NCBI GenBank assembly: GCA_028554755.1 | Contig: JAPTOF010000006.1 | Coordinates: 6,132,501-6,196,500 of the forward strand | Reading direction: 5' to 3' | Origin: Cordia subcordata | Taxonomy: Eukaryota; Streptophyta; Magnoliopsida; Boraginales; Cordiaceae | DNA length: 64,000 nt | Shown here: positions 28,145 to 63,705 of the stretch, piece by piece | How the letters are laid out: every line of letters starts with the position of its first letter | How positions within the stretch are numbered: the stretch's first letter is position 1 | Made by a program: the position numbers and the translations under genes | Notes under the pieces: generated by a model | The model's database searches: none | The model's input: the letters and a program-made list of their open reading frames with translations, nothing else | Told to the model about the DNA's origin: nothing

Positions 28145-31100
28145 CTAGAGAAAAGACCAGTTAATAAAAGCAAAGGCGATGCAATGCACAGAACCTTCCT
28201 CATTCAGGACTCTCCAGGCAACGGCTTGCTCATATGAAACATAATGCGCCATTCGTGACAGACAAACTCCAGAAGATAGAAAAGCATAGCCCTGAAAAGA
28301 GAACGGTATGTTAGAAGCACTTTTTTCTCCTCGCCAACTCCCCTTACCCGAGAGAAAACCATTTTTCCCCTTTAAGAAGCATTATAGCCGCTAACAGAAA
28401 GAAAGGATCTATAGAATTTAGAGTTATGTGATTCTAATCTTCCAAATTACCCGCTGCATCACTGCTGGAACAACAGAACTCAGCGCTGATTTACCAGGCT
28501 CATCAAATATCTGATCAATTGAGATCTCTTGCAAGCCTGCTAGAGTTGTCTCCAGCATTGAAAGTCCATCTTGGTTGGCGAACAAGCAAAATGGAGTAAA
28601 CTACGGTATGTCATTCAATTGATTAGTAACAACAATGAGGATTCCAGCAACTGGAGCAAACCTCGTTTTCCCAGGCTCTATTGATTAAAAGTCCAACATG
28701 GATGTAGCATTTCAATTTGAAAATAAGAAATTTTTATGCTAATGACATGGTGACAGCAGCAGCTCAGTCCCAGGAGGTTTTCGTTTGTGTACTAACTGAC
28801 AATACTCTATTCCATGACATTATCAGTTTCTACTTTTATTTAAAGAAACCATAATTAACTTTTGTTGCCAAAGAAATCACGGGTGCCTCACGTTAGTGAA
28901 TCCCAGAAAAGATAAATTCAACAAAGATGGACCATACAAAGACTTGGTGCACAGTATGTAGAGAATATATCAAAAGACATGTCACAAAATCATGGAGAAG
29001 AAAAAAGGATGACCACAGAACTAGTGTTCCACCAAAATCTGGTGTTTCTACATTCACTTTAGCAAGAGGTTTGTTGCATGCAGAATTTTATAATCTTACC
29101 TCGAATGACCAACAAAGTATAGCATCCTGATGATGCCAGAGTCCCTCCAGTAATGAGCCACTAACTGAGGCATTGGGCCTTAGCAACTCGCTACCTAAAC
29201 TTGATCTGGATTAAATGAACTCAACAAAGTCGATTATACAAAGGAATCCAATGCCAAAATGACTTGTCACGACATTCCTAAATTAAAATGTAAAAATTAT
29301 TTAGGTAAAATGTATCCTATATAGACAAGATCATATAGTTTCAGTTTGTTCCTGATTATAGAAATGTAGAAAAAATCTTCTCCAGTAAAGAAGGGAACCT
29401 CCACCTACATTTGCATCAGAATCCAAATTACATTAAGCAGTTTTGCTGAGTCATGCAACTACATGAACCACTCCATATAATTGAATGTCAAACAGTGAAA
29501 AAGGCAAAAATTTCTAGATTAACAGATTTTCTAAAAGACTTCTCACAAATGATAGAGACAAGCAATTGTCTAGATCTGGGTTTTTACAGAAATGACTTAG
29601 ATTTGATGGAGCCATTAACTTGCCTATAACTCTCACAGATCATGTTAGCAAGATTCACAGCCTCATCAGAGTCTGCAATGAGCTTGATTCCTCTCTCAGG
29701 CTCTGATCCAGATTGTGTTGCTGTTTTAGCAACCTTCTGCACAATGGACATAACATGGTGCACATAATTTTGAGCTATTGTTGCAATTTCCTCCTGATGG
29801 TTCCTCTGAAAGGGGAACTGGAAAGCAGTATCAACACTGAACACGAGTTATTAACTGAAGATGCATTGTCAACAGGGTGGTTTCCAGCTGCACGTCCATT
29901 CATGTATCTTGGCAGATCTTTTGACCAATTAGCTGTCAAGGTGTCCTGCCCGTCATACAGTAAATATGAAGAATATGAGCTGAACATAAGAAAGCAAGAG
30001 AAAATTTAAAGTGACGAAAGCATAACTAAGCATTTTTAACCATCCCAATAATTTTAATCGACAACTGCAGAACATAAGCTACCAAAATTGTTTCTGCAAT
30101 TAAAGAGACGCTCCCATCAAGAGTAACACTTTGTCATCCATTAGGATAGGAGAAATTGAAAAAAAAGTAGGACTTTGATGAAGTCAAGCCATCTATACAT
30201 AAAATATTTATTCCATGGATAACCTCTACATCACCTGGAAACAGTTATTATTTGAAAGATTAATTCAGACTGAACCAGAGCGGGTAGTATGTCAAATAAA
30301 TTATCGAGGCAAGAGGAGAGGAAAAAGAGAGCACATTTTGTCCATGTTTAAAGAAACAGAAGGCCCAAGATAGCGGGTTGTCAATTAGTCCAAATACGCA
30401 AATTTCTCCTTACAAACACAAAAGCAACTCTAAGACATGGGTAGTGATTAATTCGTATAAGACTGTTCTGCTGCAGGCCAAGACTCAAAGCATCACTCTT
30501 AGCTTGAGAAACAGTACATAAAAGAGCACTGTCAATCCCAACTAAATTTAATAAAACAATTGTATATCAACTATATTGCTGTCATCTTCACCCTGGAAGA
30601 GGCTAAACAGAGGTGCTAATAGTTCACCTTCCAAAGTAAAACTGCTCAGAATAGATTCTTCACACATGGATTTGCAAAAGAGATGATAGACTCATTTCCC
30701 TTTTGAAGAGAATAATTAATAGTGAAAACATCTGATCTATGGAGCCTTTCTACAAGATCTAAAAATAGTCTTGTTGATGTGAGACAAATAGAAGTTCAAC
30801 AAACCCTTAAAGCATCTAGATTGAGAAAATGAAAAAGAGCTATATGTTTATCCTGAAAGACTGGATGCTGACTTGGGATGGCATGGCAATTACATCTTCA
30901 CCATCCAATGCACATGTGAAAATTTTTACAACTTTCTGCCTTTGAAATATGGCTGGAAGGCAATCAGGCGAGGTGAATCAGATATATAAAGTTTTTACCA
31001 AGAACATCACACAGTAAGATGATCTGATTTTATACTTAAAAACTCAACTGTTTTTGAGCTCAATGATAAGATGCGAAATCCAGAGGCTAATAGCATGGCA

Positions 31101-34100
31101 TTATCAGGGAGTGTTCTATCAATTGGAGCAAAAATCAGTTCTGAGCAAGATCCAATACAGTTATCTTCCATTCCGTTGCAAATCTGTAAAACAATTAGAA
31201 GTGTAAGTATCTTGTTTACATAGAAATGTTCAGTTGTTCATCATCCTATCATATTAATGACAGAGGTCACAGAGAGAATATATAAAAAAAAAAGGAAGAG
31301 AAAGACCGTCCAAAAAAATGTAAAACTTGAACAAGTGATAATTGAACCCGTGGCTCCACAATTTTCCTGGAAACATAATGCACAGTCACGCTAGTTAATC
31401 ATAGTGGATATTGCTTAGAAGTATGTTATCCATAACTAAATATTTTTGAAAGAGTAAACACTAATAGCTTATGAAAGGTACTATTCAAGATATCCCTATG
31501 AAAAATGAGGGGTATCATATACTAACGGGAAAAGAATTCTAGAAACTAGTATCCAAATCTTACAACTAATGGAAAAACCAAGACAGAGAGAAAAATAAGC
31601 TAAACTAAGTACAGTTAAAATAGATCTGCCAAGGAGCAAATTAACAACTTTCTGTGCTTAATTTACCGATAAAAATAGAAGAAGTTCCGAGGTAAATATT
31701 ATATGCTGACACTGAAACAAACCAAACAATGTCACGTAAAAGCTTAAGATATTAGACACGGAAATACATTATACCATATGCCTTAAAACATTGCCAGATT
31801 CCTTTTAAATGAATATAGAGGACTAAAATAAAGGCTACTGTGGGGACTTGATCGTAATACCTTTCTGCTTTGAGCTCATACAGAAGAACGATCTGTCTCA
31901 TCTTAAAAGCTTTCACTATAAGATTGAGAGATGTTGAATTATTCACTGTGTTCAAAGATTCAATACATTCTTTTGAAGAAGGACAAAATGAGTTCAAACT
32001 TTTACATATAAAAAGGAAAATGTAGGGGCTTACTTTGACCAAGCCAAAATTTATTATCTCTTTTCTGTTAAAAGTACACGCACTGTGAAGTGAGGATGTC
32101 AAAAGTAGGACCACGCATTTAAAGCCATCAACTGCCTAAGGTAGTGAGACTGATGGAACTTATATAAAAGGCGAAGCTTTTTCAATTTTCTAGATAAGGT
32201 AACTGGTTTTTGGCAAGGATGGTTTTAGATAATATAGTTTCAAAAATGATCTCTTATACACAACAAGAAGCAGGTAAGTCAGACACCAAATCTATTGAAA
32301 CTTCCCTCAGTGGATATCCTCCCTCCAAAAAGTTTTAAGGTTACCCTTAGGTTGAGAAAAGAGAAGTCATCTCATGTATATTCAAACATCTGAGCCAGTT
32401 CAAGCACTGGGGTCTATTGGTGACAAGGACTAATTACTACTACACAACACTCACTTGTATTCACTCTAGAGGGAGATATCTAGCAGGTAAAAGACAAGGA
32501 CGATCAGTGCCTAAATGATCAATATGCATGTATGTCCTGGAAAGAAAATAAACTAAAGAAAAGCCATTACAGCCACAATGACAAGGCTGAGATTTATGGG
32601 GAAACCAAACTAGTTATACAAGTATAAAATCCCAGACATAGTAAGGAGAAGGCATGGAGAAAAGGTCACGCATTATACATGCCTTTTTGCGCCAAAGTAC
32701 ATTCTTTGGGTGCAAGAATTATCCTTACCATTCTTATAGGGAAAAAGACATTACCGAAGGCCTATTGAAGAAAGAAAACTGAATAGTGAAGATGGAATTA
32801 TCAAGAGAAAGCTGATGAAGCACCTGCAAAAGATATATGGTTCCCCTGAAAGAGTCTCTCCAACAAGAAATCTGGCTCTCAACTTCAATTATTTCCAAAA
32901 TCTGGGATACAAAAACAACATAATTAAAAAGTGTATAGGAAAAGTACATATGAAAGAAGTAATCAAAGGAAAGAATATAGAAGTATGTCACTTGTGGGTC
33001 AGTTCTGGTCCTAGAAGGAGTAATCATGATGTCTATCAGTCAATTTTCTGCCACATTACTTTGTTACTTTAGGGACCTAAGCTCAACATAACACATGACC
33101 ATAACAAGGATAAGGAATTTACGTAATCTTAATCCTTTTTGCCATGCTTCAACCCCCTAAAATTTTGGTTCTTTGTTTTAGTGTGCGCCATTTAACTGCA
33201 GGTGAGAAAAAGATATTAGTGTTAACAAACCTCATCCTGATTAACAGTGTGCCCAAGACATACAACCGGATCATACAAATGCTTGCAGTTGAAACTAGGA
33301 GAGCCAAATGACCGAGCTTCTAATGATGCATCAGAACTGGTATCTGCCCAATGAGAACGATGATCCCTCAAAAGTCGCACAAGTGCTGCAGGGGAAACAC
33401 TCTCGTAAAGACATAAGAAATTGTGTTAAACTACTAGCTGTATGTATGATTCATGAGAAACTGTCTTCGGTTATTTAATGCAAGGAATATTCAGATATGC
33501 TGGTAAATTAATTTTAAAAGAAAATCTTATGGTAAGAACACATTAGCCTCCATTTGGCAACTTTATCTATGGATATTTGTTAATGCAAGGAGAAATCATG
33601 AGCTCATTAATTCATTAATGTTGTAGTTTGGCAGTGCTTTTGCTATAGACTTCTGAATATGCAAACTGGAAAGATGATTGGTTTCGAACACAAGCAACAG
33701 AATGTGGAACATTAACTTGCAAACTTGATTTTGTATACTGCTTCTTCAATTTTCGATGATGTGATGATATAGAGTCAGGAATTAATGCATTTCATTCTCA
33801 GCAAAGACGCTTCAAGCCATTCTTCAGGTGCAATAGGCATTCAGGTGACTCCTTCCCCACCCTTAAGCCAACTGTTGCTTTTGATTTGAAGGCAATTTCA
33901 TCCAGGTGTCAACTAAAAAGAGAACTTGGAATACCAAATGAGGTCTTAACCAAATTTCCCAGTGACGTCGATTCACACCTTAACTTCCAAACATTGTCTA
34001 CTTGCTTTGTTAAGTATTAGATTAAGCAATCCAAAGTTCAGATCCATTATTCCAGTATTAGATCAATCAATCTAGTAACTTTCTTTATGGAGATAGAATG

Positions 34101-37100
34101 ATAAGTATCACTTGATTTTAAAATACTGCACATCCCTTTATAGAGGAAGAAACAATGAGAAGTCCCACATCAGACTGCTATACGAAATATGGGCAAGTTG
34201 TATCATGAAATGCTAAGCTCAAGTAACAACTCCAGCAAGCCCTTTCGGCATAGTGAGTTCCAGGCCCAAGAAAGTTATTTCTCAAGCTATGACATAAGCC
34301 CTATGATGCAGTCCAGAATTTTATTATTTTAGTTAGTCATTAAAATTGGTTCGAATTTAGGATTTGTTATTTGTTATTTATTATTGAGTCCTAGTCATAT
34401 TAGGATTAGTTTATTACCTATTTTGTTATGGAAAGAGTTGGTAGAAGTTTTAGTTTCCTAATTAGTTTTAGATTCCTATTTAGTTTTAGTTTCCTATTTA
34501 GTTTTAGATTCCTATTTAGTCTTAATTTCCTATTTAGTTTTGGATTTCTAACATATATATAGGGGTGAAAGCTTTCATTGTTACATAACTTTTTAGAATT
34601 ATTGAATAATATTTACTTCTCTCTCCTAGGGTTTATTATCTGATTTCTTGGCTAATTTCAGCCTTGAAATTGAGCTCCTTGATTCTTCTACCTTCTTGTT
34701 TATGTTTTCCAAATTTCCGTTGCATTAGTTGGTATCAGAGTAATGTTTTTTTTTCAGCTAATTTCAAGTTCATGATGCTTTTAAGAAGAGGAAGAAGTTA
34801 TGTTGTAGCAGCTGGAGTTTTTCCCCCTGATCAACAACAATAAGAAGATGGAGGCATTAGTTGGTATCTGGAGTTTTTACTCCCTGATCAACAACAACGA
34901 CATGGAGAATTACAAGAGTTGAGAAAACAAGTTGAAGCCTTAACTCAGCGCCTTGCGCAACTTGAAACTCCAACTCATGATCGTGATGATTCGAAGGAAG
35001 AAATAATTGAGAACCTGTTTCATAATCGTGCACAACGACATGTGCCTTATGTACGGGAAGAACGAAAATGGGATGGAGGTTTTAAAATTGAAATCCCTGA
35101 ATTCAATGGAGGAATTCAAGCGGAAGAATTTATTGATTGGTTGGCTGCAGTTGAAAGGATATTTGATTTTAAAGATGTTCTTGAAAATAAAAAGGTGAAA
35201 TTAGTAGCTTTAAGATCGAGAGGGCATGCATCTGCATGGTGGGATCAACTTAATTTAACATGCCAAAGAAGGGAAAAGCCAAAAATTTCAGATTGGGAAA
35301 AGATGAAAAAGAAGTTGCATGAAAATTTTCTTCCTTTCAATTTTGTCCAAACCATGTATCAAAGCTTGCAAAACCTTTGTCAAGGCAACCGCACTGTTAA
35401 TGAATACACGGAGTATCAATTAATAGCTCGTAATGACTAATCTGAGAATGAGGAATAGTTGGTAGCAAGATATATTGGTGGGCTCAGGCAAAACATTCAA
35501 GACACATTTGCCCTACACAATTTTTGGACTATTTTAGAAGCGTTTCAATGTGAGTTAGTTGCAGAAAAATAGCAAAACAGGGGCAACAATCAGGCTAGAA
35601 ATAATCATGATTTTATGACCAGATTTGCAAGCCAAAGTCAACAAGGTCAAGGAAGGGGTTTTGACAACTGTGAGACACAAACAGGTGCACCAAAGAGTAA
35701 TTCAGCAAATCAAACAACTAATGCATCACCAAATACTAGAAATCAAGGTAGTGGTTCCGCAAATCGTTGCTACACGTGTGGGGATCCTAATCATAAATTC
35801 ACTGAGTGTAGAAAAAACAATAGCAGAGAAGGGAAGAATTTGTTCATGGAGAATGATGATCAAGAAAACGAAGAAGAAGAAGAAGAAGAGCCTATTCATG
35901 ATGAAAGTTATGAAGATGATGAAGCTGATATGGTATTTGGAGATGTTGGTGAGTCTCTCGTGGTCCGAAAAAACCTTATTGCACTGGAACAAGATTCTGT
36001 GGATAATTGGTTACGCACTAACATTTTTCACACTACTTGCACTATTGGTGGAAAAGTATGTAAGCTTATCATTGATAGTGGAAGTTGTAAAAATATTATA
36101 TTTGAAGAGGTTGTTTCCAAACTAAGTTTGCCAATAGAGTCATACCCTCAACCTTACAAGCTTGCATGGTTCAAAAAGGGGAGTGAGGTACCTGTTACTA
36201 AACAATGTCTCGTTCTTTTTCTGGTAATAAATACTTTGATAAGGTGCTTTGTGATGTTGTGGCTACGGATGTGTGTCACCTGTTATTGGGTAGACCTTGG
36301 CAATATGATCGTAATGCGAAACATGATGGTAGGAAAAATACTTATATGTTGTATAAAGGCAACAAGAAGATTATTCTAGCTCCTACTAAAGATGAAAGTG
36401 TGACAAAACAAAAGAAATCAGATTTTGTTAATTTTCTTTCTATGTCCAAATTTGCTAAAGAGTTGGAGGAATCTAGAATTGCCTTCACTTTGACTGGAAA
36501 GGAAATATCATCCCCGAGCGCTATACCAGATGAGGTGCAACCTATTCTTGATGAGTCTAGTGATGTCATGCCTAATGAACTACCACCAGGATTACCTCCA
36601 ATGCGAGATGTACAACACTGTAGTGACTAGATTCCAGGTGCAAGTTCTCCAAATAAAGCTCACTATCGGATGAGTCCAAAACAGCAAGAAGAATTGAACA
36701 GACAAGTGACTGAACTTTTAGAAAAAGGTTACATTCATGAAAGTATGAGCCCTTGCACAGTTCCAGCATTACTGGTTCCAAAAATGGATTGAAGTTGGCG
36801 CATGTGCATTGATAGAAGAACAGTTAATAAGATCATAATCAAGCGACAAAGAAGGCGATGACGACGACGACGTGTTGTGTTTGAAGTTGGAGACTATGTG
36901 TGGGCTATTTGGACACGTGATCATTACCCTGTTAGAGAATACAACAAGCTTAGTGCTCGGAAGATTAGACCTTGTAAGATTGTTGAGAAGATAAATCATA
37001 ATGCCTACCTCTTGGAGCTTCCTAATTATGTTACTACTTCAGATGTTTTCAATGTCAAGCATCTTGTTTCGTATCATAAAGATTAGGTCGACGATGGTGG

Positions 37101-40100
37101 TGACAACTCGAGGACGAGTTCTTTCCGCACCTGGGGAGACTGATGTAGCCCAAAATTTTATTATTTTAGTTAGTCATTAAAATTGGTTAGGATTTAGGAT
37201 TTGTTATTTATTACTGAGTGCTAGTTATATTAGGATTACTATATTACCTATTTTGTTATGGAAATGGTTGGTAGAAGTTTTAGTTTCCTAATTAGTTTTA
37301 GATTCCTATTTAGTTTTAGATTCCTATTTAGTTTTAATTTCCTATTTAGTTTTGGATTTCTAACATATATATAGGGGTGAAAGCTTTCATTGTTACATAA
37401 CTTTTTAGAATTATTGAATAATATTTATTTCTCTCTCCTAGGGTTTATTATCTTAGGGATTTCTTGGTTAATTTCAGCCTTGAAATTGAGCTCACTAATT
37501 CTTCTACCTTCTTGTTTATGTTCTCCAAATTTCTGTTGCGTTACCCCACCTTACAAATATGGGAATTGGCCCGGGGCATCAATATTAACTTAATATAGTG
37601 TGAATTGTAAATTTACTAATATAATAAACATAAATACCTGTACTTTTGAAAGAATATGATCACATTGCATTCTGGTTGTACAGGCATTTGAAAAAATGTC
37701 TGTCTATAGCTTTCTACTTCTTCTTTTCCACAACATACTATGATGACCAAACTTACCTTTTTCATAGAATAGCTAATCACTGCCATCACTGACATTTGTT
37801 GAATGAGGACCTCCATGAAATTATATTTAATCAAGTTTCACATGCCCTAGTGACTTATGTCTGGACTATAGAATAAGATGATCAGATTCTTTATGATTAT
37901 TCAAATCCCATCATACTTCTACGACAAGTTATATGCTATAAACTCCTGGTGCTTCATTCCATTGTTAATCCAAATGATTTTGGTATAGATTAAACAATAA
38001 ATCCAAAAAACTTAGTTCACAACTCACTTGAAGTAGCAGAGAGGCCTTCACACAAAGGATACCATCATATTTTGAATTGATGCCAAGATTCTTGGTTGGC
38101 ATGGTCAATGTGACCAAATCTTCGGAGGCATCATAGTCCATCAATAACCAACCATCATCAGTGAAAGTACTAATAGCATCATTGAAACCCTTACACATAT
38201 TTCCAAATAAATGACTCTGCAATGGAACATGATCTTGAAAACAAGATCACTACTGTAGCATATATCTATAAGAATAGGCTCTATCATCTATGCATAAACT
38301 TCTAAACGCTTCAATGAGAGAAGACATGAGTCAAGATTTTACCTGCTTAGTCTTTGGCTAAAAGATCGCAAACTAGGAGGCTTCATTCCATAAGGAAGTC
38401 GTAGTTTGCCACTCACTTCTTTAGCTATGAGCTCAATATGACACATTGCCTATAAGGAAAACTTAGTTAGCTCCTCAACTATGACAAGGGGTTTTCCATT
38501 TAGTTATTGAGAATGTAACTAAATAAATGATAAGTGCAAAAGTACTCGGGTCATACACAGGCATATGGTGCAACTAGTATATTAGGGGGAGACAAGAGTG
38601 AAGTGTGAGATATGGAAAAATAAAATTGGCAGCCTTACCGGTTTATCCTATCATTAAATATTATGCATGAGTGATAAGCATAATTTTTGACAAACCAATT
38701 GACTTCATGCAACATAGTTTAGAGATTGAAATTTGTTGCTGCAAATGATATTTGGTGGAATATCAGACTTTTGACGATATGCCCAGTGATCCTATAATTA
38801 GATGTTTCACTTGAAATTCTAAGCAGTAAGTGGTCTTTGATCAAGGCAACACTGAAATCACCAGATCATCTTCACTTCAATACAAGAATTTCCTCATAAA
38901 ACAAAAGAACAATTCTATTTAGTTTATCAATTAGCAAACAAACATCAAGAGGAAGAGCAAACGAAACCTGATTGGATGAGAAGAAACAATAGTTTACTAT
39001 GACAAGCATTCTGAGGTATTAAAATGGCATAACATAGTTTGACAAAATCTTTTGTGAATTATTTCCCTCTTTATGAAAATTAAAAATAAGAAGTGTATAC
39101 CATGTCTTTGCCAATCAAATAAACAAGGAAAGGCATAAGCAGTGCTAGGAGACTTCACTAGCAAATTAGCAGATAGAAATCTCTTGGCTAAAAGGATGTT
39201 TGGATTGGCTTATGGAAAATTTACTTAAGCTAATATGGCTTTAAGTAATTTTTTTTAAGTAATTATCTATTTGAATAAAAGTTATAATTATAAAAATAAC
39301 TACTTTTAACTGTTTGGTTAGTAACTTTAAAAGCTAACTTATATTGTCAAAATGACCATTAAAGACATAGAAATAGAATGCCAATTGAAAAAAAATGTAC
39401 GCTTATATAATTTTTGACTTTTTTTAAAAATAAATTATTAAAATATTATAATTTAATTTATGACTCATATGATATAAATATATAGATTATTAAATACATT
39501 ATGATACAAGACTTTGAAAAAACATAAATATTATAAATTATTAAAATATTATAATTTAATTTATGATTCATATGATATAATATATAGATTATTAAATACA
39601 TTATAGTACAACACTTTGGAAAAACATAGATATTTATATGTTAATGTTTCTAGTTCCTTTTAAAGATAGTTTAGGAATAGACATAAAATGGGAAGGAGAC
39701 TAGTAAATTAATTGATCAAACTTGTTTTCTTCTTGGTGCTTAAAGGCTAAAGCTGTAGAAAGCAAAAGCTTGGGGTGGGGAGATTTTCTAATTTTGCTTA
39801 AAGCCGCTTAAAAAACCATTTCTTTTTAATAAAACAAATGCATCTACTAGCTTAAATTGAGCTTTAAGTAGGTTTGACCAGTTTAAAAGCCAAACCAAAA
39901 ACCCTTTAAAATAGATTCAGATGCTGACTTGGCAGTCCATATTTAGGTCCAGCATGAAGTTAAATACAAACATATAATACTATCTAGATTCAACAATTGC
40001 AGTTACTCCAACCTCCTACCTATATAATGCTTAATTGTCAAAATCCTTCCAGTATATTTGTTCCCTCAAATATCAGAATGTAAAAATTTTGTTTGGAACT

Positions 40101-43100
40101 CTCATTTAATCTCACGCATTTTCCTGTTAAATGCCCTAAATTTAAAATTGAAAATAAAGAACTTCAACATTTTCACAGACAAATACCAAAATATAATGTT
40201 ATTTAGGGTGATTTATCACATATCTTGCTAAGAGGAAAGACCAGGAACCTAATAGTACTTGTAAAGACTAAAAGTACACTAAAGAGAGATTACTGCAAAC
40301 AGATGGATATGTCTTTGTCTGTATGATAGCCACAAGGAGAGTAAGACTGCTTGAATTTGTGAGGATCAGCATGAGCTTAACCAGAATAAAGGTTGTGTGG
40401 CTCTGATTGCAAAGCTAGCTAAAAGACTTCAGAGCTTTCATTCAACAACGGATCCATAGATACTGAGGTAGGAAAAAATAGAAACTCAAAAACACCAAGC
40501 ACTTACAGCAACAGTGAGTTTCTGAACCACAAGTTCTGATGACTCATAAAGAGGTTGAAGCACATAAGGCACAGATGATGCCTGAAGAGACAATGTTATT
40601 ACCAATTTGAGAAATGGAAAAGATTTGACATCCAAAAGAGTTAAAAATATGACCTCCAGATCCAAGTGGTCAACAATGTGCACCATTGATACTCCACCCT
40701 CACATGGACGAATTAGATAGCCACCGGCCAGCATATTTGCTCTTATGAATTCCAAAGAAGCAGGTGCATTTATGGGAACACTAGAACCAGATAATGATTT
40801 CTCACATACCTTGAGTGGCACCACCAAAATAAAAAAAAAAAGGAGGTTAGGCCGCAATCAGATATAGCCTATGATCAAAAACAAATATGACAAAAGTAAG
40901 ACCAATAATGACAATTTTTCTGCACAACTTCTTGATCAATCAGCTAAATTAACCTTAATGCAGGCTAACATCAGGTACATTTCATTTTTGCACTTTTCCT
41001 CTGATAGAGAGAAAGGTAATATCAGTTTCGGTGATGGAGGAGATATGACATAAATGAAAGATATGAGGGAAAAAGAAATTTTAGTAATGTCATAGTGCAG
41101 TTGAAGAATAGAGCCTTACATGATGGGTAAGACAAGCAAATTTATATACTCAATCATGTCCCCAGAAGAACTACTCTCCACCAATCAACCTACCTCATCA
41201 TGATAAATTTTCACATAGAAATCTAATTACACACTAATGGTGATAAATTTTCACATAGAAATCTAATTACATACTAATGGTAGACATTGGCTCTATTTAT
41301 AGGCGTCAAAGAAGAAAAAGATAAAATTGCTAGCCATAAACAGAATATTTTACTTGATTCTTCATCAGGCACCATAAAAATTGAAAGAATAATTGAGGGA
41401 GAAAAATAAAGAAATCACACTTTTCATATTGTAAAGGATAAGAATATTATGTCTCTTCTTATGTGGGAGAGAGACTTATTACATGATATTGTGTCCAGAA
41501 ATCAAATACTTATATTTTTCCAAAACTACCCTTGTCAATTTAAAATATTTGAAAGTAAACAAGTTTCTACTTCATTAAGTTTCTCCTCCCAATGAAGTAG
41601 AATCTTAAAATGGAAAAGTGCATGACACATCCCACAAAGGAAAAGTGCATAAGAGAAATGGGATAGTGGAAATATCATGCTTAAATAACGTAGCCACAAG
41701 GCCAACAACAAAAAAAAATTTCAACACTGAATTTATCATTAATTCTCATACAGATAAGCTTTCAAATGATGCAAAGACAATAAATGTCCAAAAGGGATAG
41801 CATACCACAAGGCTGCCATCTTCTAGAGCTGAAGTATATCTTAGAGTCCAAAAGTCACGTGCAGAAGCCAGGGTAGTTGGAGCATAGAACTGAGTGCAAA
41901 CATCAATACTTTGCAGAAATGAGAAGTGCAAGAACAAGCATAGTAAATGGAACATGAGAGAGAGAGAGAGAATGTTGGATTCAGTGGTGCTTAAGAAGAT
42001 ATTAAAGGAAAAAAGAAAAACTACTAATTTTCCTCACTTGCATGTAGAAAAACTACTAATTTTCCTCACTTGCATGTAGACTTGTTCAATTGTTCCCCCA
42101 TTTCTGGTGGGGTATTCGGCAAAGACTTCAAGTTTCCGACAATCCTGAGACCAAGATGTACGCTCCTTGAGGATTTCCATTATCTGTCAATAAATGCAAA
42201 TTAAATATTACAACCAGAAATTGCAAATTGATCAGATTCCATCAGGAGTAATTCATTATGGCCACTTCAAGGAAGTCTGCCAAAGGGCTCTATATCTACA
42301 TAAAGAGTTAACAAGTATCTCTTTCATCAGGAAGATCTATTTGGCAAGGCCCATATAGAAACTTTAACTTTCTTAAAGGAAAGAATTAAAATAGATGATC
42401 TCAATTAAAGCAAAAGAAATAAGAGAACACATGTGAACACATCTGCCCAATTCCAGTCTATTCATCAGAAACTCTAGGGCGAATTCCTTTTAGTAATATA
42501 TATGTTAGAGTTACCACCTCATCTAAAAGCTTAAGCTTATAGAGAGGATAGTGGTTTATTAATTTATTGTGTTAACACGCCTCCTCACGAGTAGCGTAAT
42601 TTGTTTAGAGCTTGCACGTGGACAATTTAATTAAAGGGGCGGTGGTAAGGATCGAACCTGTGCCGTTTGGCTTCCAGCTCTGATACCATGTTAGAGTTAC
42701 CACCTCATCTAAAAGCTTAAGCTTATAGAGAGGACAGTGGTTTATTAATTTATTGTGTTAACAATATATATCACATACACGTGAAGCAATTACTATTTCC
42801 TTTATTATATATCTGCAGGTAAATCCAAGGTGAAGAGAACTTTTAACAGAATCAGGCATCAGACAAGCAATGCTATTAAAGTAAAAAATTATGCAGCAGA
42901 GCATATGTTCTGCAAGATAATATTAACTCCCACAAACATAGAGTTACGATCCTTCAGAAGATGGAGTCAGCAGAGATAATGCAAATGCACAAGCATACCT
43001 TAATGGGAGCTAAAGGGATGACAGCGCATGCTCGTGCTGCTAATCCAACACAGTTATGAGAAACATAAACAATGCCAAAGGAGTCACAGCCAAGCTGTTG

Positions 43101-45923
43101 ATATATAAGCAAATGAGTACACAAGCAAATATGATAAGAGACTTTCAGAAGAATTATGCAGTAAAAACCTTTATCCCAGGGATGGGGATCCAGTCAATTG
43201 CATCTCCAGTAGCTTTCAAGAGAAATTCTTCCTTGGTTTTCTCAGCCAGCAAGAGGAGGCTGTAAAAGAGTAATTAGATTCACCCAGTCAATATTGTCTA
43301 CAACCTTCTAGGAGGAGGTTGTTATGGTAATCTAAAACTACCTTGTATCATCATCAGCAGTGCTTGAAATCCGAGGAGAACGGACTGCAGCTTCAGAGTT
43401 CAGCTCAGTACTGAGGGACGCTATCTATACAAAAATGATTACAAGATTATCGTTAGAGCTTTGGAAGAGTCAGCAACCCAACAAAGATCAAACTTTACCT
43501 AAAACAGAAGTGCCTTTATTGTCTATTCAAATGTAATACTGTTTTATGCTCTGCAGAGCAAATAAGAATGAGACACCCTGATATATTGAACTTATAATTT
43601 CTTAGGAAAGGTATCTTGGCCTATGAGGAGAGATCTTCACTTGTTTACAGAGGACTCAGCCAAAATTACAAATGTTGGCAATTATGAGGTGCACCCCCTC
43701 ACAACGGGGGTGCATCCTCTCGTGACAAGGGTGCTACTTTTTCTTTTTAACCAAAGAAATAAAAAATAAATTAGGGTGTTAAAAATATATGTAATCAGTT
43801 GTGTCATGAAACAAAGAAAATAAAACAGAGAAAAGAAGAAAGAAGAAGATAACAAAATCTATAATTGGTTGATCACTTATACAAAGATAGATATATTTAA
43901 TAACATCGTGGATTTTGACCAAAAAATAATAATAACATTGTGAATATTCAATGATTTCAAAATGTTAAGTCATGTTGGAGGATCATTATAAGATATGATT
44001 TTATTTACAGGGACTATAGCTATTTACTTATGTTTTTCATGTGTATTACGATGTCATTACTACATTAAATATTATGTATTTTCACAATCAATTCTTTTAT
44101 TTTGTACAAAACATAATAAATAAATGTGCCCCTTTGAGCACTAGGTCCTGGCTCTGCCCCTGTATACAATCATGTTATGTTAATGATGGTTTTTGGAAAT
44201 CATACTGACATGCTTCCTAAATTCCACAGATCAATTGTATTTAAAAAGGAAAGGAGAAAGAGAAAACCACTTGATTGCAACTATGTAAGGAATCTGGCAG
44301 TGAAATGATCTTGGTGGTTACTGAGTACATCAAGTAGCAATATAAATCAGATCAAAGGTCAGTCTTCAATATCATCCTCATCAAAAGTAAAACAATCAAG
44401 TAGCAAATTTTGACATTTGACATAGATTTTACATACAGATTGCCTCATATATATTCACTTTGATTGAGCAATTTATATTTATGATAAGTCAATGAATTCA
44501 ATTAGAATCACATTTGTATCCTGTCTAAAACATTACATATCTGATAGCAACGCAAATAGAGGAGGGAAAAATATGTCCTTACAGCTACAGCAGGAACAAG
44601 ATGCAAAAGCAATAATTGGTATGATTTATTAGATGTAATATAGAATTTAGTCAGCTAAACAGAAGCCCTTAATGTCATCAGATTACTAGCATCAGTGACC
44701 AAATTGATATCTTAACTAAACTTTACGTACATTTTGCAGCTGATGGCGTAAGCATTCATTCTCATACACCAGCTGTTCCACTTTTTTCTGCAGGTGGCCA
44801 TTTTCCTCCATCAATAATTTATTTGTCGCGGTTAACTTCTGGTTTATAGCCTGAAGTTCTACACTTTCTTTCCTCTGCTTTTCACGGCACCTGAGAAAAG
44901 GAATTAGAGAGATTAAAAGGAGCAGGACCAGTAAGACACCATACTACTCTATTCTCATCCGGAATATGAGAGAAACTAATTTGGAAATATTACTTCCTTC
45001 TATGAGAACAGGTAATGATATGGGTAATGAATTCTCCTTTCATTGTATAAAAATTAAAAAATTAAAAAATAAAAAAAAGGAGACATGGGGCTCTTCCAAG
45101 TTTAATTACTGTTAAAAAATTTAAGCAAAGATGGGCATAACCAAAATCCTAGTATTATCTGAATGAGATGTTAAATTATGGTGTTAGTTTACACACACAT
45201 GAATCATGTGATAATTCCTTGGCACCAACAGAAATTGGTCTCTTTTCTAGCAGTAGATTGAATGTTATAATAAGATTTAGAAACTGGATTCAAGTTTATA
45301 TTGAACTACAGAAAACTCGCTACCAATTTCCTTTCCCTTTCTGATCTACTAACATTAGTACTTAAAAGATCTGAAGCCATCACTGATGTTAGAACAAAAT
45401 GATAAATAATGACATTAATGCTTCACCAATTGGAAGAAATTATTTTGCAGCAAGGCATGAAAAAAGTGCTCAATGTTGTGGAGAATGAAAACTAGAAAAA
45501 CTGGAGTGTCAAAAAATTTGTAAAACAACAAAGTGAGCAAACTTTGTGATTTAAATCCGAGAGAGACATAAATGGATTGTTTCGTCTTGATGTTCAGTTG
45601 CACAACTAATCAAATCAATCCAAGCGCGTATATCCAGAACAACATAAGAAAAATGATCATTCCATTTGGCTTAGACCAATGACACCTAACCTGCGGTTTC
45701 GAAACCAGATTTTTATCTGCTTAATTTCAAGATTCTTAAGAATTGGGTAATCATTCAACATCTGCCGTCTCTGCATGCGAGTAGGATACTGACAGTCCTT
45801 GTACACTTTTTCAAGAATTTCAACCTGCTGATCTGAGTAGCGGGTATATTTTGCACTGGCCTTACCCCTTCCCTTGCTGCTCTGTTTGACATTGCCATCA
45901 CCTGCACTGCCTGTATTCACCAT
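28145..45923 (-). CDS. Class III HD-ZIP transcription factor (HD, leucine zipper, START, MEKHLA), divergent; frameshifted as sequenced
   Basis: Eighteen exons: 45923-45691, 44890-44731, 43424-43342, 43259-43169, 43094-42999, 42183-42070, 41889-41806, 40809-40654, 40581-40507, 38449-38343, about 38214-38028, 33401-33231, 32901-32824, 31183-about 31049, about 29945-29624, 29190-29100, 28600-28451 and 28291-28145. Family layout: homeodomain (residues about 24-85), leucine zipper (to about 131), START (about 155-370), MEKHLA-type C-terminus ending FAFINWSFL. Full conceptual length would be near 826 aa, normal for the family. HD-ZIP III proteins act in the nucleus in meristem, vascular and leaf-polarity development. 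Odd points: WFRN instead of WFQN (R75), degraded miR165/166 site at the exon 4/5 junction, a one-base frameshift in exon 15 (about 29826-29834) truncating the frame near residue 646, a displaced exon 11 acceptor and a GC-AG intron 15. Which paralogue it corresponds to is unclear. It may be a decaying gene. Confidence 0.85.
34304..34727 (+). repeat. 5' LTR of the gypsy element
   Basis: Starts TGATGCAGTCC and ends TTGCATTA. It contains a repeated ATTCCTATTTAGTTTTA motif (four to five times), one unit more than in the right LTR, which explains part of the length difference. Confidence 0.88.
34919..37086 (+). pseudogene. Gypsy gag-protease with partial RT and integrase tail
   Basis: The gag frame is open from about 34919 ([12 protein letters not shown]) to a stop near 35440, then resumes at 35615. 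A CCHC knuckle ([14 protein letters not shown]) is at 35768, followed by an acidic stretch. Protease is marked by LIIDSGSC with its Asp at about 36074. The frame then shifts near 36200 into a second open segment (36205-36630). Reverse transcriptase is reduced to its N-terminal portion ([10 protein letters not shown], an in-frame stop, then [11 protein letters not shown]) near 36760-36840. The next sequence, from about 36876, is an integrase C-terminal segment (VGDYVWAIW ... NAYLLELP) ending at 37086. A simple GACGACGACG stretch lies at the junction. Confidence 0.88.
37141..37543 (+). repeat. 3' LTR of the gypsy element
   Basis: Starts TGATGTAGCCC and ends TTGCGTTA; colinear with the 5' LTR apart from small indels and scattered substitutions. 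Confidence 0.88.
39198..39903. repeat. MITE-like element with internal tandem repeat (HD-ZIP III intron 9)
   Basis: Left end gtttggattggctta, right end aaaagccaaaccaaaaacc, imperfect inverted termini of the same family as those at 8796 and 23141. Inside, an AT-rich unit starting ataaattattaaaatattat near 39430 repeats at about 39532 (period near 102 bp). Confidence 0.6.
41201..41280. repeat. 40-bp tandem duplication (HD-ZIP III intron 7)
   Basis: tgataaattttcacatagaa starts at 41201 and again at 41241. The two 40-bp units differ at one visible position (acacac against acatac). Recent local duplication. Confidence 0.9.
42015..42078. repeat. 32-bp tandem duplication covering the exon 6 splice donor
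   Basis: The unit gaaaaactactaattttcc... occupies 42015-42046 and 42047-42078 with no visible difference. On the minus strand each unit contains CTACATGCAA followed by GTGAGG, so the exon 6/intron 6 donor is present twice, at 42069 and 42037. Confidence 0.9.
42503..42763 (-). mobile_element. TRIM (terminal-repeat retrotransposon in miniature), HD-ZIP III intron 5
   Basis: Two 75-bp direct repeats (42503-42577 and 42689-42763) begin TGTTAGAG and end GTTAACA, differing at one position. They flank 111 bp of interior. A 5-bp target-site duplication ATATA lies at 42498-42502 and 42764-42768. The complement of the interior next to the right LTR reads TGGTATCAGAGC, a tRNA-Met primer-binding site, so the element is oriented on the minus strand. 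It has no coding capacity and must have been mobilised by another retrotransposon. Confidence 0.88.
43084..43179 (-). promoter_or_regulatory. Degenerate miR165/166 target position (exon 4/5 junction)
   Basis: In HD-ZIP III mRNAs the miR165/166 site spans this splice junction and encodes PGMKPGPDS. Here the two halves read CTGGGATAAAG (43179-43169) and CTTGGCTGTGA (43094-43084), encoding PGIKLGCDS. Against the usual CTGGGATGAAG and CCTGGTCCGGA halves there are about six mismatches, four of them consecutive in the part that pairs with the miRNA seed. The site is therefore unlikely to be cleaved. Confidence 0.8.
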
Positions 45924-52336: not shown

Positions 52337-55300
52337 TCACTCATGGAGTGTTAACTCCATTGTAAACTCTCTGCCAATTAGCATAGACAGCTGTGAGATC
52401 TCCACATTTAAATTTTTGTATCTATCAAGCTTCACTCTTGGCAACAAGCCACCATGCAGATTTCCAGCCTTGATATTAACAAGTGGATATCTTTTTGTCT
52501 TGCCAATCCTTTCTACTCCAAGGATAGTAACCTTAGTTATGATCCACTTCTGGTTTAGAGCAAATGCTCCATTTAGAACTTTGGAGCTAATAATCAGCTT
52601 ATTTCTCAGAATGGTGCTGTCGAATTTTATCAGACTCCATTGTCCTCCATCTGCAGCCATTTCAACAACTTCTCCATCATCCAAGAAAACTTCACCAGCG
52701 CTGTTTCCGCTACTGCTGATGGCCACCAAAAGCTCAAACGGAGTCTTTCGTGCTGCTTGTGTTGTCATCGCTTCCCCTTGCATCGCTAAAATATTTCCTT
52801 CATGAATATGCACATTTATATGATCAGGTGGTGTATCAAGCCTGACATTTTTCCCCGGCTGGACAATCACAGAATTTGAATAGTTGAAAAGATCAAACCA
52901 TTTTCCAGCTGGGAAATATGCATCAACTGAATCTGCTCCCGGCTTCAGAACAGGGGATACCATTACTCCCTTACCAAGAAGAAACTGTGAGTTGATTCCA
53001 TATGTATTAATGTCCTGAGGAAACGAGAAGAAAAGTGGTCGTGCAATAGGGATGCCTTTAGAGTGAGCCTCGAACATTAATGTATAGAAGTATGGTAATA
53101 GCCGAGAACGGAGGCCAAGCACCTTCCTGGCTGATGCAGCAACCGAGTCCCAGAGATAGAGCTCTTGACGCAAGGTCCCTTTTCCAGAGTGGTCTCTAGC
53201 GAAAGGATAAAAGGCCCCTAGCTGCATTCGATAAAAAAGTGATATTAATCTATGTTTCATTTGTGAAACAAGAGCAGGTTTTTGTTCTTTCTGTGAAAGA
53301 TCCAGGGAAGGAATTCCTAGTAAAAGTATGTTAGGTTATGGTTCAAAGTCCAAGCCCATACAAATTAGGAAAGAGTTTTAATGAGAATTAAAATTCTAGT
53401 TATGGTAAGAGTCTTAATTATGGTAGGATTGATAGATGAGGAAATCCTTTGTCTTGGAGGACAAGGAAATCTCCTCTATAAATAGGACTCTTGTATTAGT
53501 CGTATAAAGTGTGTGCCTTAGGACCACACCCCATGAGGGGTGTGGGTGAGAGAGAGAGCCTGAGAGCATCAAGAGTATCTTATATTCGTTCTAGTCCTGT
53601 TGAGGATAGAACCGTTATAAGAACTCTGTAGGAGAGGGTTTAGATTTTTCTGTCCGTGCAAAAAGTCATCACCCGAGTTGTAATCCCATTATTGTTGCAT
53701 AGTGAAATTTATCCCAGAGGGGATCGTGGACGTAGGCAGAGGGCCGAACCACGTTTAATTATGCGTATTCTTTTCTCGTTACTCGTGCTTTAATTCCGTT
53801 GCGTGCTTTAATTCCGTTGCGTGAGAGTGTGTTATGCGTCCTCATTTTCCCAACAAAGTATATGCTTTCCAGTAAACATGAAAGGAAATAAATGAATCTA
53901 CCCAGGTGGAAACTATGTACACTATGTGCTTGAAAATTCCATTTTAGAAATCATTGAACCAAGAAAAGGGAGATAACAAAATCTGAGTATTGTCTATTAT
54001 GTCTTCAGTGAAATAATCTCGTGAATTGTTCAAGAACTCAAAAGTTTTTACCTGAATCCAACGCCTGCAGAGTTCTTCGGTGGTGTCTCCGTTAAAGCCA
54101 CATATATCAGCTCCAACCACAGGAATCCCAAACAATCCAAAATTTAATATGCTAGGAATAGTGTAAGCTAAATCATCCCAAGTGGCAGCATTGTCTCCAG
54201 TCCAGTGTGCTGTGTACTCGCCAGAGCCCACAAAAGTAGATCTACTAAGCACAAAAGGTCTTTTACCTGTTACACTGGCTAATGCTTCATTGGTAGCTCT
54301 AGATTCCAAGAACCCATAAAGATTATGAGCATTGTACTCTGTGATGTTGCCGAAATGCAACGCGGTAGCTGGGATGGTTTTCTCATAAATGGGCCGTCGA
54401 CTTCCAGAATTGTTGATTTTATAGGGAGGGTTATCGAGTGTAGAAGAAGGAGAGGGAGGAGAGGTGATGAAATTAGATAACTCATTCATGTCGATCCAGA
54501 GGCCGTCGAAAGGTAGAAGATCACGGAATATCCTGATTTCATTAGTCCAAAATGTTTTGGCCTTGGGATGAACAAAGTCAGGGAAATAGACTTTTCCAGG
54601 CCAAACTTCACCAAGATAAGGTACTCCATCACGTTTAATGTATATATCACTCTGCATCCCTCGTACAAATGTCTCATAAGTTGTATTAACACTGATTCCT
54701 GTCACGAGACAATGATGTTACGGATGCTAGACAGAATGCCGTCAGCAGAGTCAGTTCCCCCAAGGGATTTATAGTCACTCAAAAAGCCAATGTATCAATA
54801 TGTAGTATATAGAAACTTACCTGGATCCACTATAACTACATATTTCTGCCCGTTTTGGTGAAGTGTATCAACAAATTTCTTCATCCTATCTATAGGAAAA
54901 TTAACAGGATCAAGAGTGAAATCCTTATAGCCATCCATGTAGTCAATATCTGTCCACATAACTTCAAGAGGGATTTTAGCCTTTGCATACCCAGCAACTA
55001 CATTCTCCAGATCATAGACATCTTTGTAGCCATAGCGGCACTGGTGAAATCCTATAAACATCAAATTAACAACGATATATTTGAGAAAACCTATTGTAAG
55101 ATTTGTATCAGGCTCACAATCACACATGGAGGAAGAAAAATCTTAGAAGAAGATGGGGCACACAAATCTAAACAAATAATATTGCCTGATTCTGGCTCAA
55201 GGAAAAGCATTTGGACAATTCGAAAACCATTGTTTTCAAGAACATGAGTTGTGAAACCATCTTTAGTAATGGTACTATCAATTGCTCCCATCCAGTTCTT

Positions 55301-57034
55301 ATTTTTAAAACCCTCAAAGAGTGGACAAGGATTATAGAATAGTTATAGTAAAACAAGCATGATATTCATCTACCAATTCTAAGTTTCATAGTTCTTTGGC
55401 AGCAAATGTTTTTCCCTTTTTTTTGGGACAAAAGTAGAATGTCAAGGTTTATAGTCATATCTTATCTGCGTATCTGTTTATGCATTAGTACCTCATAGCA
55501 TTTTCATCTCTTCTTTAATTTGATAAACACTGGACCTCAGGCATAATAAGATTGGTATCTTCTCAATTATGCAAAAAATGATACAGTTCCAGGACTAAGT
55601 CTTGAATGAATTCTACTCACAGAGTTTCTATTGATGTGATCTCCGACCACCACATATAGAAACATGAGAAATGGTCTAGGTAGACCAATTCCTTAAAAAA
55701 TTGGTGAAAGGGAGAATTGCAGGTCAGGCAGTTAGCTAGAGGATAATTCAGAATCAGCGGACTAGCAGCACACAAGAAACAATAAGTACCTAATAAGCAG
55801 AAGTGAGCCGATGAAAATGAAAGAGAGATTGCATTATATCTTTAACTTTCTAAGCTTACCAAAAGACCAGTATGGCATAGGTGTTGGGCGGCCAATGAGC
55901 TGAGTGTATTGATCCATCACCATTTCAGGCGTGGGGCCAGCAAAGAAATAGAAATCGAGGATTCCACCGATCACTTTATAAGTTATTCTATCCCCAGTAT
56001 ACACAATGTCCATGCCATTGCTATTCAGCAACAATGATCCATGAGTGTCTCCACTAGGTGATCTGACATCCATATAAAAAGGGTGGGAACCATACAAGTT
56101 GACATCAATATTAGCACTTGCAATGTCAGCATTCCACATTGTAAGTGTCTGGTGGGGTTCCAATCTTAAGGACCCCTTAGTATGCTCCCCAAGGCCATAC
56201 AAAGAGGACCTATCAAGTGGCAGTGCGGAGGAAAGTAGGAGGTACTGGTCCTTGAAGACAAGAAATGTGCCAGGGTCATCTCTTTTTGGAGAGGTGTCGA
56301 ATAGGATATCACCTGATGAGCGACGACTGACTGTAAAGCCGAATGGGGTGGTATTATGCAGGGCAAATACATGGTCAGAGACCGGGTCAGAGAGGAAATA
56401 GTCATCTTTCGGTGATTGTACTTGTTTGCAATACGGATGGTTGTTCTCTGGGAGGATGCGGTGGGGAGAGTGAACCCGACGAGGGAGGATCTCTTGCGGC
56501 ACTTCCCATCTCTGGTGATCTGCATCTGTGACTTTGATTCTTAAACGATCTTTCGTCTCCAGGCTGCAGAATGGGGAAGGCTATGATATGACATGTTTAG
56601 CTAATCAAATTGTAAACTGCAGTCATGAAATACAATCAAAGCGAAACGAAAACCAAACTCTTGGTGATTACCAAGTCTTTTTCCGAGCTTTAGAGCCCTT
56701 TTCTGCTACTGTTTCATCAAATCAATGAAATTACTGATACCATATAATTAAATCATTTACCAAATATAACTTACCTGGCTACAAGACTCAGGTTCTCAAC
56801 ATCAGGTCCATAAACTGAGGACATCTTGATGAGCTGAAGATGGGCAGTCAACGACTTCCCTGAGTGGTCAACGCTGACGCATTTTACAGTGTAACCATAC
56901 CCAACTTGTTCACCTTGTATTCCAGCTTTTGCTGCTACAACCAAGAAAGCTATAATCAATCCATGGGAGAAGACATGGAAGATTGTAAGATTCAGAAGTT
57001 GCCAAATATGGAAAAATGGAGATATTGTAGCCAT
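52337..57034 (-). CDS. Alpha-glucosidase, glycoside hydrolase family 31, secreted, intact
   Basis: Five exons: 57034-56775, 56563-55860, 55051-54821, 54698-54052 and 53221-52337. They total 2727 nt (908 aa plus stop), GT-AG introns, all phases consistent. The start is the ATG at 57034 (MATISPFF). A hydrophobic signal peptide (about residues 1-37) implies secretion to the apoplast or vacuole. GH31 features: GFHQCRYGY and [10 protein letters not shown] in exon 3, the nucleophile Asp in WIDMNE (about D468) and the acid/base Asp in HWTGDN (about D567). Substrate-shaping GADICGF and the beta-rich C-terminal domains follow. The enzyme hydrolyses terminal alpha-linked glucose from maltose or starch oligosaccharides. 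It resembles the plant acid alpha-glucosidase group (Arabidopsis AGLU1 type) more than alpha-xylosidases, which read WNDDDHMDG at the corresponding place. A solo LTR lies in intron 4, and a dead tandem copy lies 3.3 kb upstream. Confidence 0.93.
53329..53855 (+). mobile_element. Solo LTR (copia-type) in alpha-glucosidase intron 4
   Basis: 527 bp beginning TGTTAGGTTATGG and ending CATTTTCCCAACA, flanked by a perfect 5-bp duplication AAGTA (53324-53328 and 53856-53860). A TATA box (ctctataaatagg) lies near 53473-53485 and the transcript-end region holds ggatcgtggacgtaggcaga, both typical of plant copia LTRs. A 17-bp segment (gtgctttaattccgttgcg) is duplicated near 53785-53822. No internal region remains, so this is the product of LTR-LTR recombination. 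Confidence 0.9.
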
Positions 57035-58586
57035 GTTGAGAAGACTCAAGTTTACACTGGGTATATATGTCCTTGTAAGAAAAGATTATCTTATCTTGAA
57101 AATCATGACACAATAGGATCTTGCTCTTTGACAAAGTCCACTCGTCACATGCTTCAAAATCATGCCCACGGGGGAGAATGACTTTTTTCAAGTTCATAGT
57201 CCACATTGACGACCCCGGTTCGATTTCTTAGTCTATTCTGTAATTATTCATATGCAACTAGTAGCCTATCAATGTATTGGGTCCGTAGTCACCAAATCCA
57301 CAACAAAGTCATGGTACGAATTCAGGTACGGCGTACACCGATTAGGAGTTTATAGGATACATTGGAGGTAAACTTCTTTGGTATGCTAATTGGATTTATG
57401 CTGTGTGCGGTACGCTAATTAGGTTTATGTTATGTTACGAAGAATTATTAGGTTAATTTACTAAATTAATTATGTGGAGCAGTTATATATTTTGCTCACT
57501 AATTGCTAAATTACTTTGCTCCAAAATCTAAATTTAACAGCTAAAATAATTTTTTAATAAGTAATATAAACTTTAAAATAAAGAATAAAACTAGCATTTT
57601 AAATTGGCCAAACAAGAAACTAAAAACAGACAAAGATTTCAAGTTGTTATTCTCTTCCCATTTTTCTCTTTTGCTAGACCTCTTGGCAGCTTAGTTATTC
57701 GAGTCTCTAATTTTGGCGAACTAGAAATTGAATCGTAGTGTTTCGGTGTATACATATACCGTGACTTGGGATATGTAATCTGATACGTGATTTAAGAGAA
57801 TCTGAATGAATCTAATAATTATTGAATAGGTCTAATAATTCAGGATATCTTAAGAGCACAATAAAAATGATAGAAAAACTTGGCATTATAAATTGACCAT
57901 ATATCTTTTATAAAGAAGTTTGGTTTAGGAAGCACCGACTCACTAGCTCTGCATAACAGCGGACAATGGTTGACTGGAAAGTCCTGAAGATTGCATATCA
58001 ACGTGCACTCAAGTTTGCTTGGCCTGCATTAGCAGCACTTGCTCATTCTTCTGAGTGTGCTCCAGTTGGCCTATAATGGCGTTCGCTATCCACTTGTTTG
58101 CGTAATACTATCGTGTGACACGCACTATTATTTGTGATAGTGCTTTGATACTATTTGCAACCTTATTTGAAATCCAATAGAAAGTATTTTCACATATCAT
58201 AGCTGACTCTCTTGATCTCAGCGCGGAAAGATACTGATCATTGCAAAAGATATGAACCATAGACATGTTAGAAAACGTGGTACTTAAATTTGACGATCAA
58301 TATGAACAGCAGAATCATGATAGATGTATTAATTTACTTATAAAATTCCTAATTACGGAGATTTATATGAAATTTAAGAACGAAAAGTTATGTTAATTCA
58401 TAGACTCTTTCGTGCATACTGCTACCAAGAACTTTAATAAGTCCATTCATTAGTCAAGCATTGGAGTATCCTTCATGTCTTGGAAGGAGAGAAAAGCTCA
58501 TTTGTCCTGTAAATATTCTAGACAAGCTTACTCAGAAAATTTGCAATAAAGGGAGTCCATTCAATTCACTCACTCTTTGAAACAAG

Positions 58587-60352: not shown

Positions 60353-63705
<3,353 letters not shown>

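What the first reader, a model, noticed from the sequence alone, without database searches (positions are those of the whole stretch)
43084..43179. HD-ZIP III gene that has lost its miR165/166 target site
The miR165/166 site is among the most conserved regulatory sites in land plants, and almost all HD-ZIP III genes keep it because it encodes PGMKPGPDS. Here the same exon 4/5 junction encodes PGIKLGCDS. The nucleotide site has about six mismatches, including four consecutive ones opposite the miRNA seed. If expressed, the gene would be free of the polarity-defining miRNA. It is either a miRNA-independent class III paralogue or one released from constraint.
Basis: partly seen in the sequence, partly recalled or inferred. 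Interest (0 to 1): 0.78.

Follow-up and report, generated by a model that had tools for sequence, protein, structure and literature searches.

The report
Decaying REVOLUTA-like gene lacking miR166 site
A flowering plant carries a fast-changing extra copy of the leaf-polarity gene REVOLUTA that has lost the microRNA switch its relatives keep, most likely because the whole copy is wearing out rather than because it gained a new, microRNA-free role.

Summary
A minus-strand 18-exon class III HD-ZIP gene (45923-28145) encodes PGIKLGCDS across the exon 4/5 junction. The spliced site scores 12.0 against miR166 (recalled canonical sites 2.5-3.0; usual cut-off 4), and no synonymous coding of PGIKLGCD scores below 8.5. 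Of the 144 relatives listed, 139 keep PGMKPGPDS; the other five differ at one residue.

What is new: the gene belongs to a second, old REVOLUTA clade, seen here only in grape, Nyssa, Cornus and the window. Its end branch is 1.19, against 0.19 and 0.28. The site peptide is no more changed than the rest of the protein, so the site went with gene-wide relaxation. The homologous frame is broken at the exon 11 acceptor and in exon 15, and the exon 6 donor lies in an exact 32-bp duplication. Yet no in-frame stop occurs where about 13 were expected under neutrality, so decay looks recent. Cryptic acceptors would still give a 788-codon open frame, so a working miR166-free factor, with homeodomain Q50 changed to R, is not excluded.

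RNA data would decide. The species was not identified.

The parts
45691..45923 (-). Exon 1: start codon and homeodomain, including WFRNRR (Q50 to R)
44731..44890 (-). Exon 2: end of homeodomain and leucine zipper, heptads intact by eye
43342..43424 (-). Exon 3: linker
43169..43259 (-). Exon 4: START domain; ends ...IPGIK, first half of the former miR166 site
42999..43094 (-). Exon 5: START domain; begins LGCDS, second half of the former miR166 site
43084..43179 (-). Interval of the finding: spliced site 43179-43169 plus 43094-43085, penalty 12.0 against miR166
42070..42183 (-). Exon 6: START domain
42014..42077 (-). Exact 32-bp tandem duplication that duplicates the exon 6 donor; use of the second donor shifts the frame
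41806..41889 (-). Exon 7: START domain
40654..40809 (-). Exon 8: START domain
40507..40581 (-). Exon 9
38343..38449 (-). Exon 10
38028..38189 (-). Exon 11 in the conserved frame; the acceptor at the homologous position is one base out of frame; in-frame cryptic acceptors at 38214 and 38169
34304..37543 (+). LTR retroelement inside intron 11; repeated stretches 34304-34727 and 37141-37543, 90-97% identical
   Evidence: polyprotein-like plus-strand frame at 36862-37083 (named from recall)
33231..33401 (-). Exon 12
32824..32901 (-). Exon 13
31049..31183 (-). Exon 14
29624..29945 (-). Exon 15 with a one-base frame break between 29832 and 29829; cryptic in-frame acceptor at 29817; donor reads AG|GCAAGT (GC-AG intron)
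29100..29205 (-). Exon 16: MEKHLA domain
28451..28600 (-). Exon 17: MEKHLA domain
28145..28291 (-). Exon 18: MEKHLA domain, normal C-terminal end and stop codon

Best explanation
This is a divergent, decaying copy of REVOLUTA from a second REVOLUTA clade that arose early in eudicot history and survives, in the data seen here, in grape, Nyssa, Cornus and the window's plant. After the duplication the copy drifted under weakened purifying selection. On the branch to this plant it accelerated strongly, lost complementarity to miR165/166 among more than two hundred amino-acid changes, and has recently begun to lose its reading frame (shifted exon 11 acceptor, one-base break in exon 15, duplicated exon 6 donor). 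If transcribed, its message would escape miR166; splicing at the homologous positions gives a stop at codon 416, leaving the homeodomain, zipper and START but no MEKHLA, and probably exposing the message to nonsense-mediated decay. Shown by computation: site loss, clade, acceleration, frame breaks. Inferred: the order of events, low or no function, and that site loss follows relaxed constraint.
For: Penalty 12.0, and 0 of 9216 synonymous codings of PGIKLGCD at 4 or less. Clade win+Nyssa+Cornus+Vitis 100/100; end branch 1.19 against 0.19 (Nyssa), 0.28 (Cornus) and a median of 0.063 over 39 chosen rows. Without the window row the clade Vitis+Nyssa+Cornus is still 100/100, and one clade of all Cornales copies is rejected, p-AU 3e-72. 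Site 9-mer no more changed than average. At columns at least 98% constant in 130 canonical rows the window differs at 133 of 419, Nyssa at 79 of 418, Cornus at 82 of 418, Vitis at 44 of 418. Two frame breaks and a duplicated donor. The neighbouring alpha-glucosidase copy 1, joined by eye to 908 codons, shows no frame break, so a high indel error rate is unlikely.
Against: No in-frame stop in 821 codons where 12.6 were expected if the 207 amino-acid changes had been neutral. Changes on the window branch still avoid family-constant sites, 82 of 339 against 125 of 271 at variable sites, p 2e-8. Both frame breaks can be bypassed: exon 11 by acceptors at 38214 or 38169 or by another exon 10 donor at 38417, exon 15 by an acceptor at 29817 or by several internal introns; two of these together give a 788-codon open frame. 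The tree program warns that the place of a row as long as the window's is unsure. No expression data, and the window's genome could not be searched.
Confidence: 0.68

Rival explanations
1. A working, miR166-independent class III factor. The exon 11 and exon 15 acceptors have moved to 38214 (or 38169) and 29817, the protein is about 788 residues, and the changed homeodomain (Q50 to R, 19 of 47 family-constant positions changed) gives it altered DNA binding.
For: 788-codon open frame with acceptors 38214 and 29817; no stops where 12.6 were expected; zipper heptads intact by eye; constraint still visible; position 50 is Q in 143 of 143 listed relatives with a residue there; 19 of 47 changed in the homeodomain.
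Against: The exon 11 rescue at 38214 uses GAG directly behind a CAG acceptor that leads to a stop; the one at 38169 removes conserved residues; the exon 15 rescue removes about 43 residues. The duplicated donor could split splicing. The branch is far longer than in its sisters. Homeodomain constancy is already loosened in Nyssa (12 of 47) and Cornus (11 of 47).
Confidence: 0.2
2. The gene is intact in the plant; the two one-base frame breaks are assembly errors, and only the miR166 site loss is real.
For: Both breaks are of one base, and everything else in the gene is open. The neighbouring alpha-glucosidase copy 2 also holds a stop and frame changes, which could share that cause.
Against: Alpha-glucosidase copy 1, joined by eye to 908 codons (its splice sites not checked by script), has no break. 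The long branch and the donor duplication do not depend on single bases.
Confidence: 0.09
3. The site is kept through a diverged endogenous miR166 or an alternative junction.
For: None found.
Against: Positions 1-5 all lack Watson-Crick pairs to miR166 and miR165, and no near copy of the recalled exon 5 start with 3 or fewer mismatches lies in the gene. The same miRNA must still fit the plant's other class III genes (inference; those genes were not seen).
Confidence: 0.03

Closest known systems
REVOLUTA (REV) clade of class III HD-ZIP genes (Nyssa P0017, Cornus P0050, Malania P0004)
   Same: Domain order HD, zipper, START, MEKHLA; 18 exons, as reported for grape class III genes (PMC5609062, passages); 52-54% identity
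   Different: No miR166 site, Q50R, long branch, frame breaks
Second REV-like clade: Nyssa sinensis F0562_026007 (P0002), Cornus florida REVOLUTA-like (P0003), Vitis vinifera P0121
   Same: Same clade at 100/100; shared residues by eye such as EVFA in all four and IMEILK in window, Nyssa and Vitis, not Cornus
   Different: Their site peptides PGMKPGPNS, PGMKPGLDS and PGMKPGPDS can still be encoded by targetable sites (172 of 4096, 24 of 6144 and 72 of 4096 codings at penalty 4 or less); their real codons were not available
Grape VvHDZ21 (chromosome 13, 841 aa, best match REV; PMC5609062, passages)
   Different: Reported there as not detected in ovules of two cultivars but expressed in somatic embryo stages
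Paralogues that lost or gained a miRNA site after whole-genome duplication in rice (PMC2567346, passages incl. part of the abstract)
   Same: 17 of 29 duplicated pairs with only one miRNA-targeted copy, through gain or loss
   Different: That text does not mention miR166 or HD-Zip

Membership tests
Class III HD-ZIP | Homeodomain, START and MEKHLA in one protein | tested here: met
   Pfam PF00046, PF01852, PF08670 above cut-off, on a read-through with X at two frame breaks
Class III HD-ZIP | Leucine zipper directly after the homeodomain | tested here: met
   Alignment columns after [11 protein letters not shown], heptad leucines kept, by eye
Class III HD-ZIP | 18 exons with a junction inside the miR166 site | tested here: met
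   Gene model; 18/17 exon/intron in grape from PMC5609062; the position of the junction in other genes is recalled
Class III HD-ZIP | miR165/166 complementary site encoding PGMKPGPDS | tested here: not met
   Penalty 12.0; 139 of 144 listed relatives keep the peptide
Class III HD-ZIP | Intact open reading frame | tested here: inconclusive
   Broken at exon 11 acceptor and exon 15 in the homologous frame; open with cryptic acceptors
REVOLUTA second clade | Groups with Nyssa, Cornus and Vitis copies, apart from canonical REV | tested here: met
   100/100 (long-row warning for the window); clade kept without the window row and AU test against a single Cornales clade
Functional miR166-free regulator | Expression and activity in the plant | not testable with these tools
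   No RNA or degradome data for this plant

The most novel reading that the evidence does not exclude
A flowering plant keeps a translated REVOLUTA paralogue that has left miR165/166 control, re-sited two splice acceptors and changed homeodomain position 50 from Q to R, so that it acts as a polarity-independent class III factor with altered DNA binding.
Probability: 0.18. Interest if true: 0.72.

Novelty: new variant of a known kind. Interest (0 to 1): 0.42.

Why it matters
The miR166/HD-ZIP III pair is an old and conserved regulatory pair of land plants (recalled; its presence in Marchantia is in PMC10721683, passages), and none of the 144 relatives listed here shows a comparable change at the site. 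A second REVOLUTA clade that keeps targetable site peptides in grape, Nyssa and Cornus but has lost the site in the window's plant offers a natural series: does miRNA control go before, with or after protein function? Here the evidence says it goes with gene-wide relaxation, which is a useful caution against reading every lost miRNA site as an innovation.

Tried and rejected
Rejected: a near copy of the recalled exon 5 start that would restore the site, at 3 or fewer mismatches; another miR166 site of penalty 6 or less in the unspliced window; one clade of all Cornales copies, i.e. a recent Cornales-only duplication (AU test); faster change at the site than around it. First taken as plain pseudogene evidence and then weakened: the two frame breaks, because cryptic splice sites exist.

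Led nowhere: Rfam and tRNA scans of the window (0 matches to 4227 families at gathering score, 0 tRNAs). Placing the species: the alpha-glucosidase tree puts the window loosely among asterids without firm sister, the HD-ZIP tree next to the Nyssa and Cornus copies. Searching the window's own genome: not answered. Literature on loss of the miR166 site in class III genes: in the listings (titles and starts of abstracts, capped lists) I saw nothing that describes this clade or such a loss; beyond listings only the passages were read. PMC5322543, on duplicate divergence at miRNA sites, holds none of my four terms and was not read.

Limits: nucleotide sequences of relatives were not available, so no dN/dS and no real site scores for Nyssa, Cornus or Vitis. 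The homologue searches scored 7991 candidates, found 1614 and listed 120 each, so further clade members may exist and the 144 are the best-scoring rows, not a sample. Of 144, 14 rows were dropped before the 130-row canonical set: P0001, P0060 and the three clade members by name, nine for length outside 825-850 aa. The tree used 38 of the 144, chosen by me, and that used 29. The stop expectation uses the window's present codons and a 2:1 transition weight.

Full report
Observation. The finding lies in a minus-strand gene. Exon 4 ends ...IPGIK and exon 5 begins LGCDS, with GT and AG borders. The spliced 21-mer was scored against miR166 (letters checked in PMC5286673, passages) and miR165 (recalled). 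The penalty is 12.0 and 11.5; three recalled canonical sites give 2.5-3.0 and 2.5-3.5. The soybean variant miR166z, whose register is shifted by two bases, finds no site either (best in exons 1-10: 11.0). In 60% of 200 plain shuffles of exons 1-10 the best of all positions reaches 12.0 or less, so the site is no better than the best chance site in such a message; taken at its own place it is still a recognisable remnant. Duplex energy is 0.46 of a perfect duplex against 0.85 for the recalled canonical site. Over all synonymous codings, PGIKLGCD cannot score below 8.5 (0 of 9216 at 4 or less), whereas PGMKPGPD (72 of 4096), the Nyssa peptide (172 of 4096) and the Cornus peptide (24 of 6144) can.

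The gene. Exons were placed by conserved protein positions and splice signals. Eighteen exons run from the start codon at 45923 to the stop codon at 28145. Pfam finds homeodomain, START and MEKHLA. Of the 144 relatives listed, 139 keep PGMKPGPDS and the five others differ at one residue each. The homeodomain motif WFQNRR reads WFRNRR; position 50 is Q in 143 of 143 relatives with a residue there.

Kinship. The best match over nearly the whole length is a Nyssa sinensis protein (57%), with a Cornus florida protein at 54% and canonical REVOLUTA proteins mostly at 51-54%; the top score goes to P0001, a Cinnamomum protein whose START region is repeated (sequence). A profile of window, Nyssa and Cornus raises Nyssa and Cornus far above the rest (1782 and 1751 bits; P0001 1580, next 1391). 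A likelihood tree joins the window, Nyssa and Cornus copies (100/99) and these with a Vitis protein (100/100), apart from canonical REV of Nyssa and Cornus; the pair Nyssa-Cornus within it has only 92/60, and the program warns that so long a row is hard to place. Without the window row the clade stays at 100/100, and holding the Cornales copies together with Cornales REV is rejected (108 log units, p-AU 3e-72). A fast tree of 144 rows (143 database proteins and the window) finds no further members. Grape has two REV-like genes, VvHDZ11 on chromosome 6 and VvHDZ21 on chromosome 13 (PMC5609062, passages). From recall, chromosomes 6, 8 and 13 of grape form one set of the ancient core-eudicot triplication, which would date the clade; this was not tested. 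In that paper VvHDZ21 was not detected in ovules but was expressed in somatic embryos.

Rate and constraint. The window's end branch is 1.19 changes per site; Nyssa 0.19, Cornus 0.28, median 0.063. The site 9-mer has 3 changes; the mean over all 9-mers is 4.08, in START 3.1, and 80% of all 9-mers have 3 or more. So the site peptide did not change faster than the protein around it. Two results go against simple long-standing decay. Where Nyssa and Cornus agree (610 sites) the window differs at 207; neutral change would bring about 12.6 stops with them, and none is present in 821 codons, P about 3e-6. From these numbers (my arithmetic: 3 divided by 0.061 stops per change) at most about a quarter of the changes can have come after constraint ended. 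And the 207 changes still avoid family-constant sites (82 of 339 against 125 of 271; p 2e-8).

Frame and splicing. The exon 11 acceptor at the homologous place is one base out of frame, and exon 15 has a one-base break. Spliced at the homologous places, the message stops at codon 416. Acceptors at 38214 or 38169, or an exon 10 donor at 38417, would pass the first break, and an acceptor at 29817 or several internal introns the second; with 38214 and 29817 the frame is open for 788 codons. With 38214 alone it stops at codon 647. The acceptor at 38214 competes with an adjacent CAG that leads to a stop; the others remove conserved or linker residues. The exon 6 donor sits in an exact 32-bp tandem duplication, and use of the second donor shifts the frame, with a stop at codon 286. 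Assembly error is a possible source of the two one-base breaks. Against it, the neighbouring alpha-glucosidase copy 1, joined by eye to 908 codons, has none; for it, copy 2 has an in-frame stop and frame changes of its own.

Reading. The most economical account is an old REVOLUTA duplicate that lost constraint by degrees, lost its miR166 site as part of that, and is now losing its frame. The finding is real, its claim of a lost site is sound, and the expectation of a polarity-free regulator is possible but less likely. Decisive data are transcripts, degradome reads and the coding DNA of the sister copies.

Noticed in passing
window 60356-63722 (minus): A second alpha-glucosidase (GH31) copy beside copy 1 (about 52340-57037) has an in-frame stop at 63401-63399 and at least two frame changes; its four long stretches are 79-88% identical to copy 1 in DNA, so the window may hold two decaying duplicates.
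   Followed up: partly
window 11668-15276 (plus): Copia-type LTR retrotransposon polyprotein in several adjoining open frames (named from recall of the motifs).
   Followed up: no
window 34304-37543: LTR element in intron 11 of the HD-ZIP gene, LTR stretches 90-97% identical, so perhaps inserted fairly recently.
   Followed up: partly
window 42502-42763: 76-bp direct repeats, 99% identical, flanking about 110 bp in intron 5; looks like a small mobile element.
   Followed up: no
window 29620-29626: Intron after exon 15 appears to use a GC-AG pair with the donor AG|GCAAGT.
   Followed up: no
window about 15500-23913 (minus): A gene that looks like ER metallopeptidase 1 (from recall of the protein in the frames; not searched).
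   Followed up: no
P0001 (Cinnamomum micranthum): Annotated ATHB-15 protein of 1170 aa contains a long stretch with its START region twice, probably an annotation or assembly artefact.
   Followed up: no
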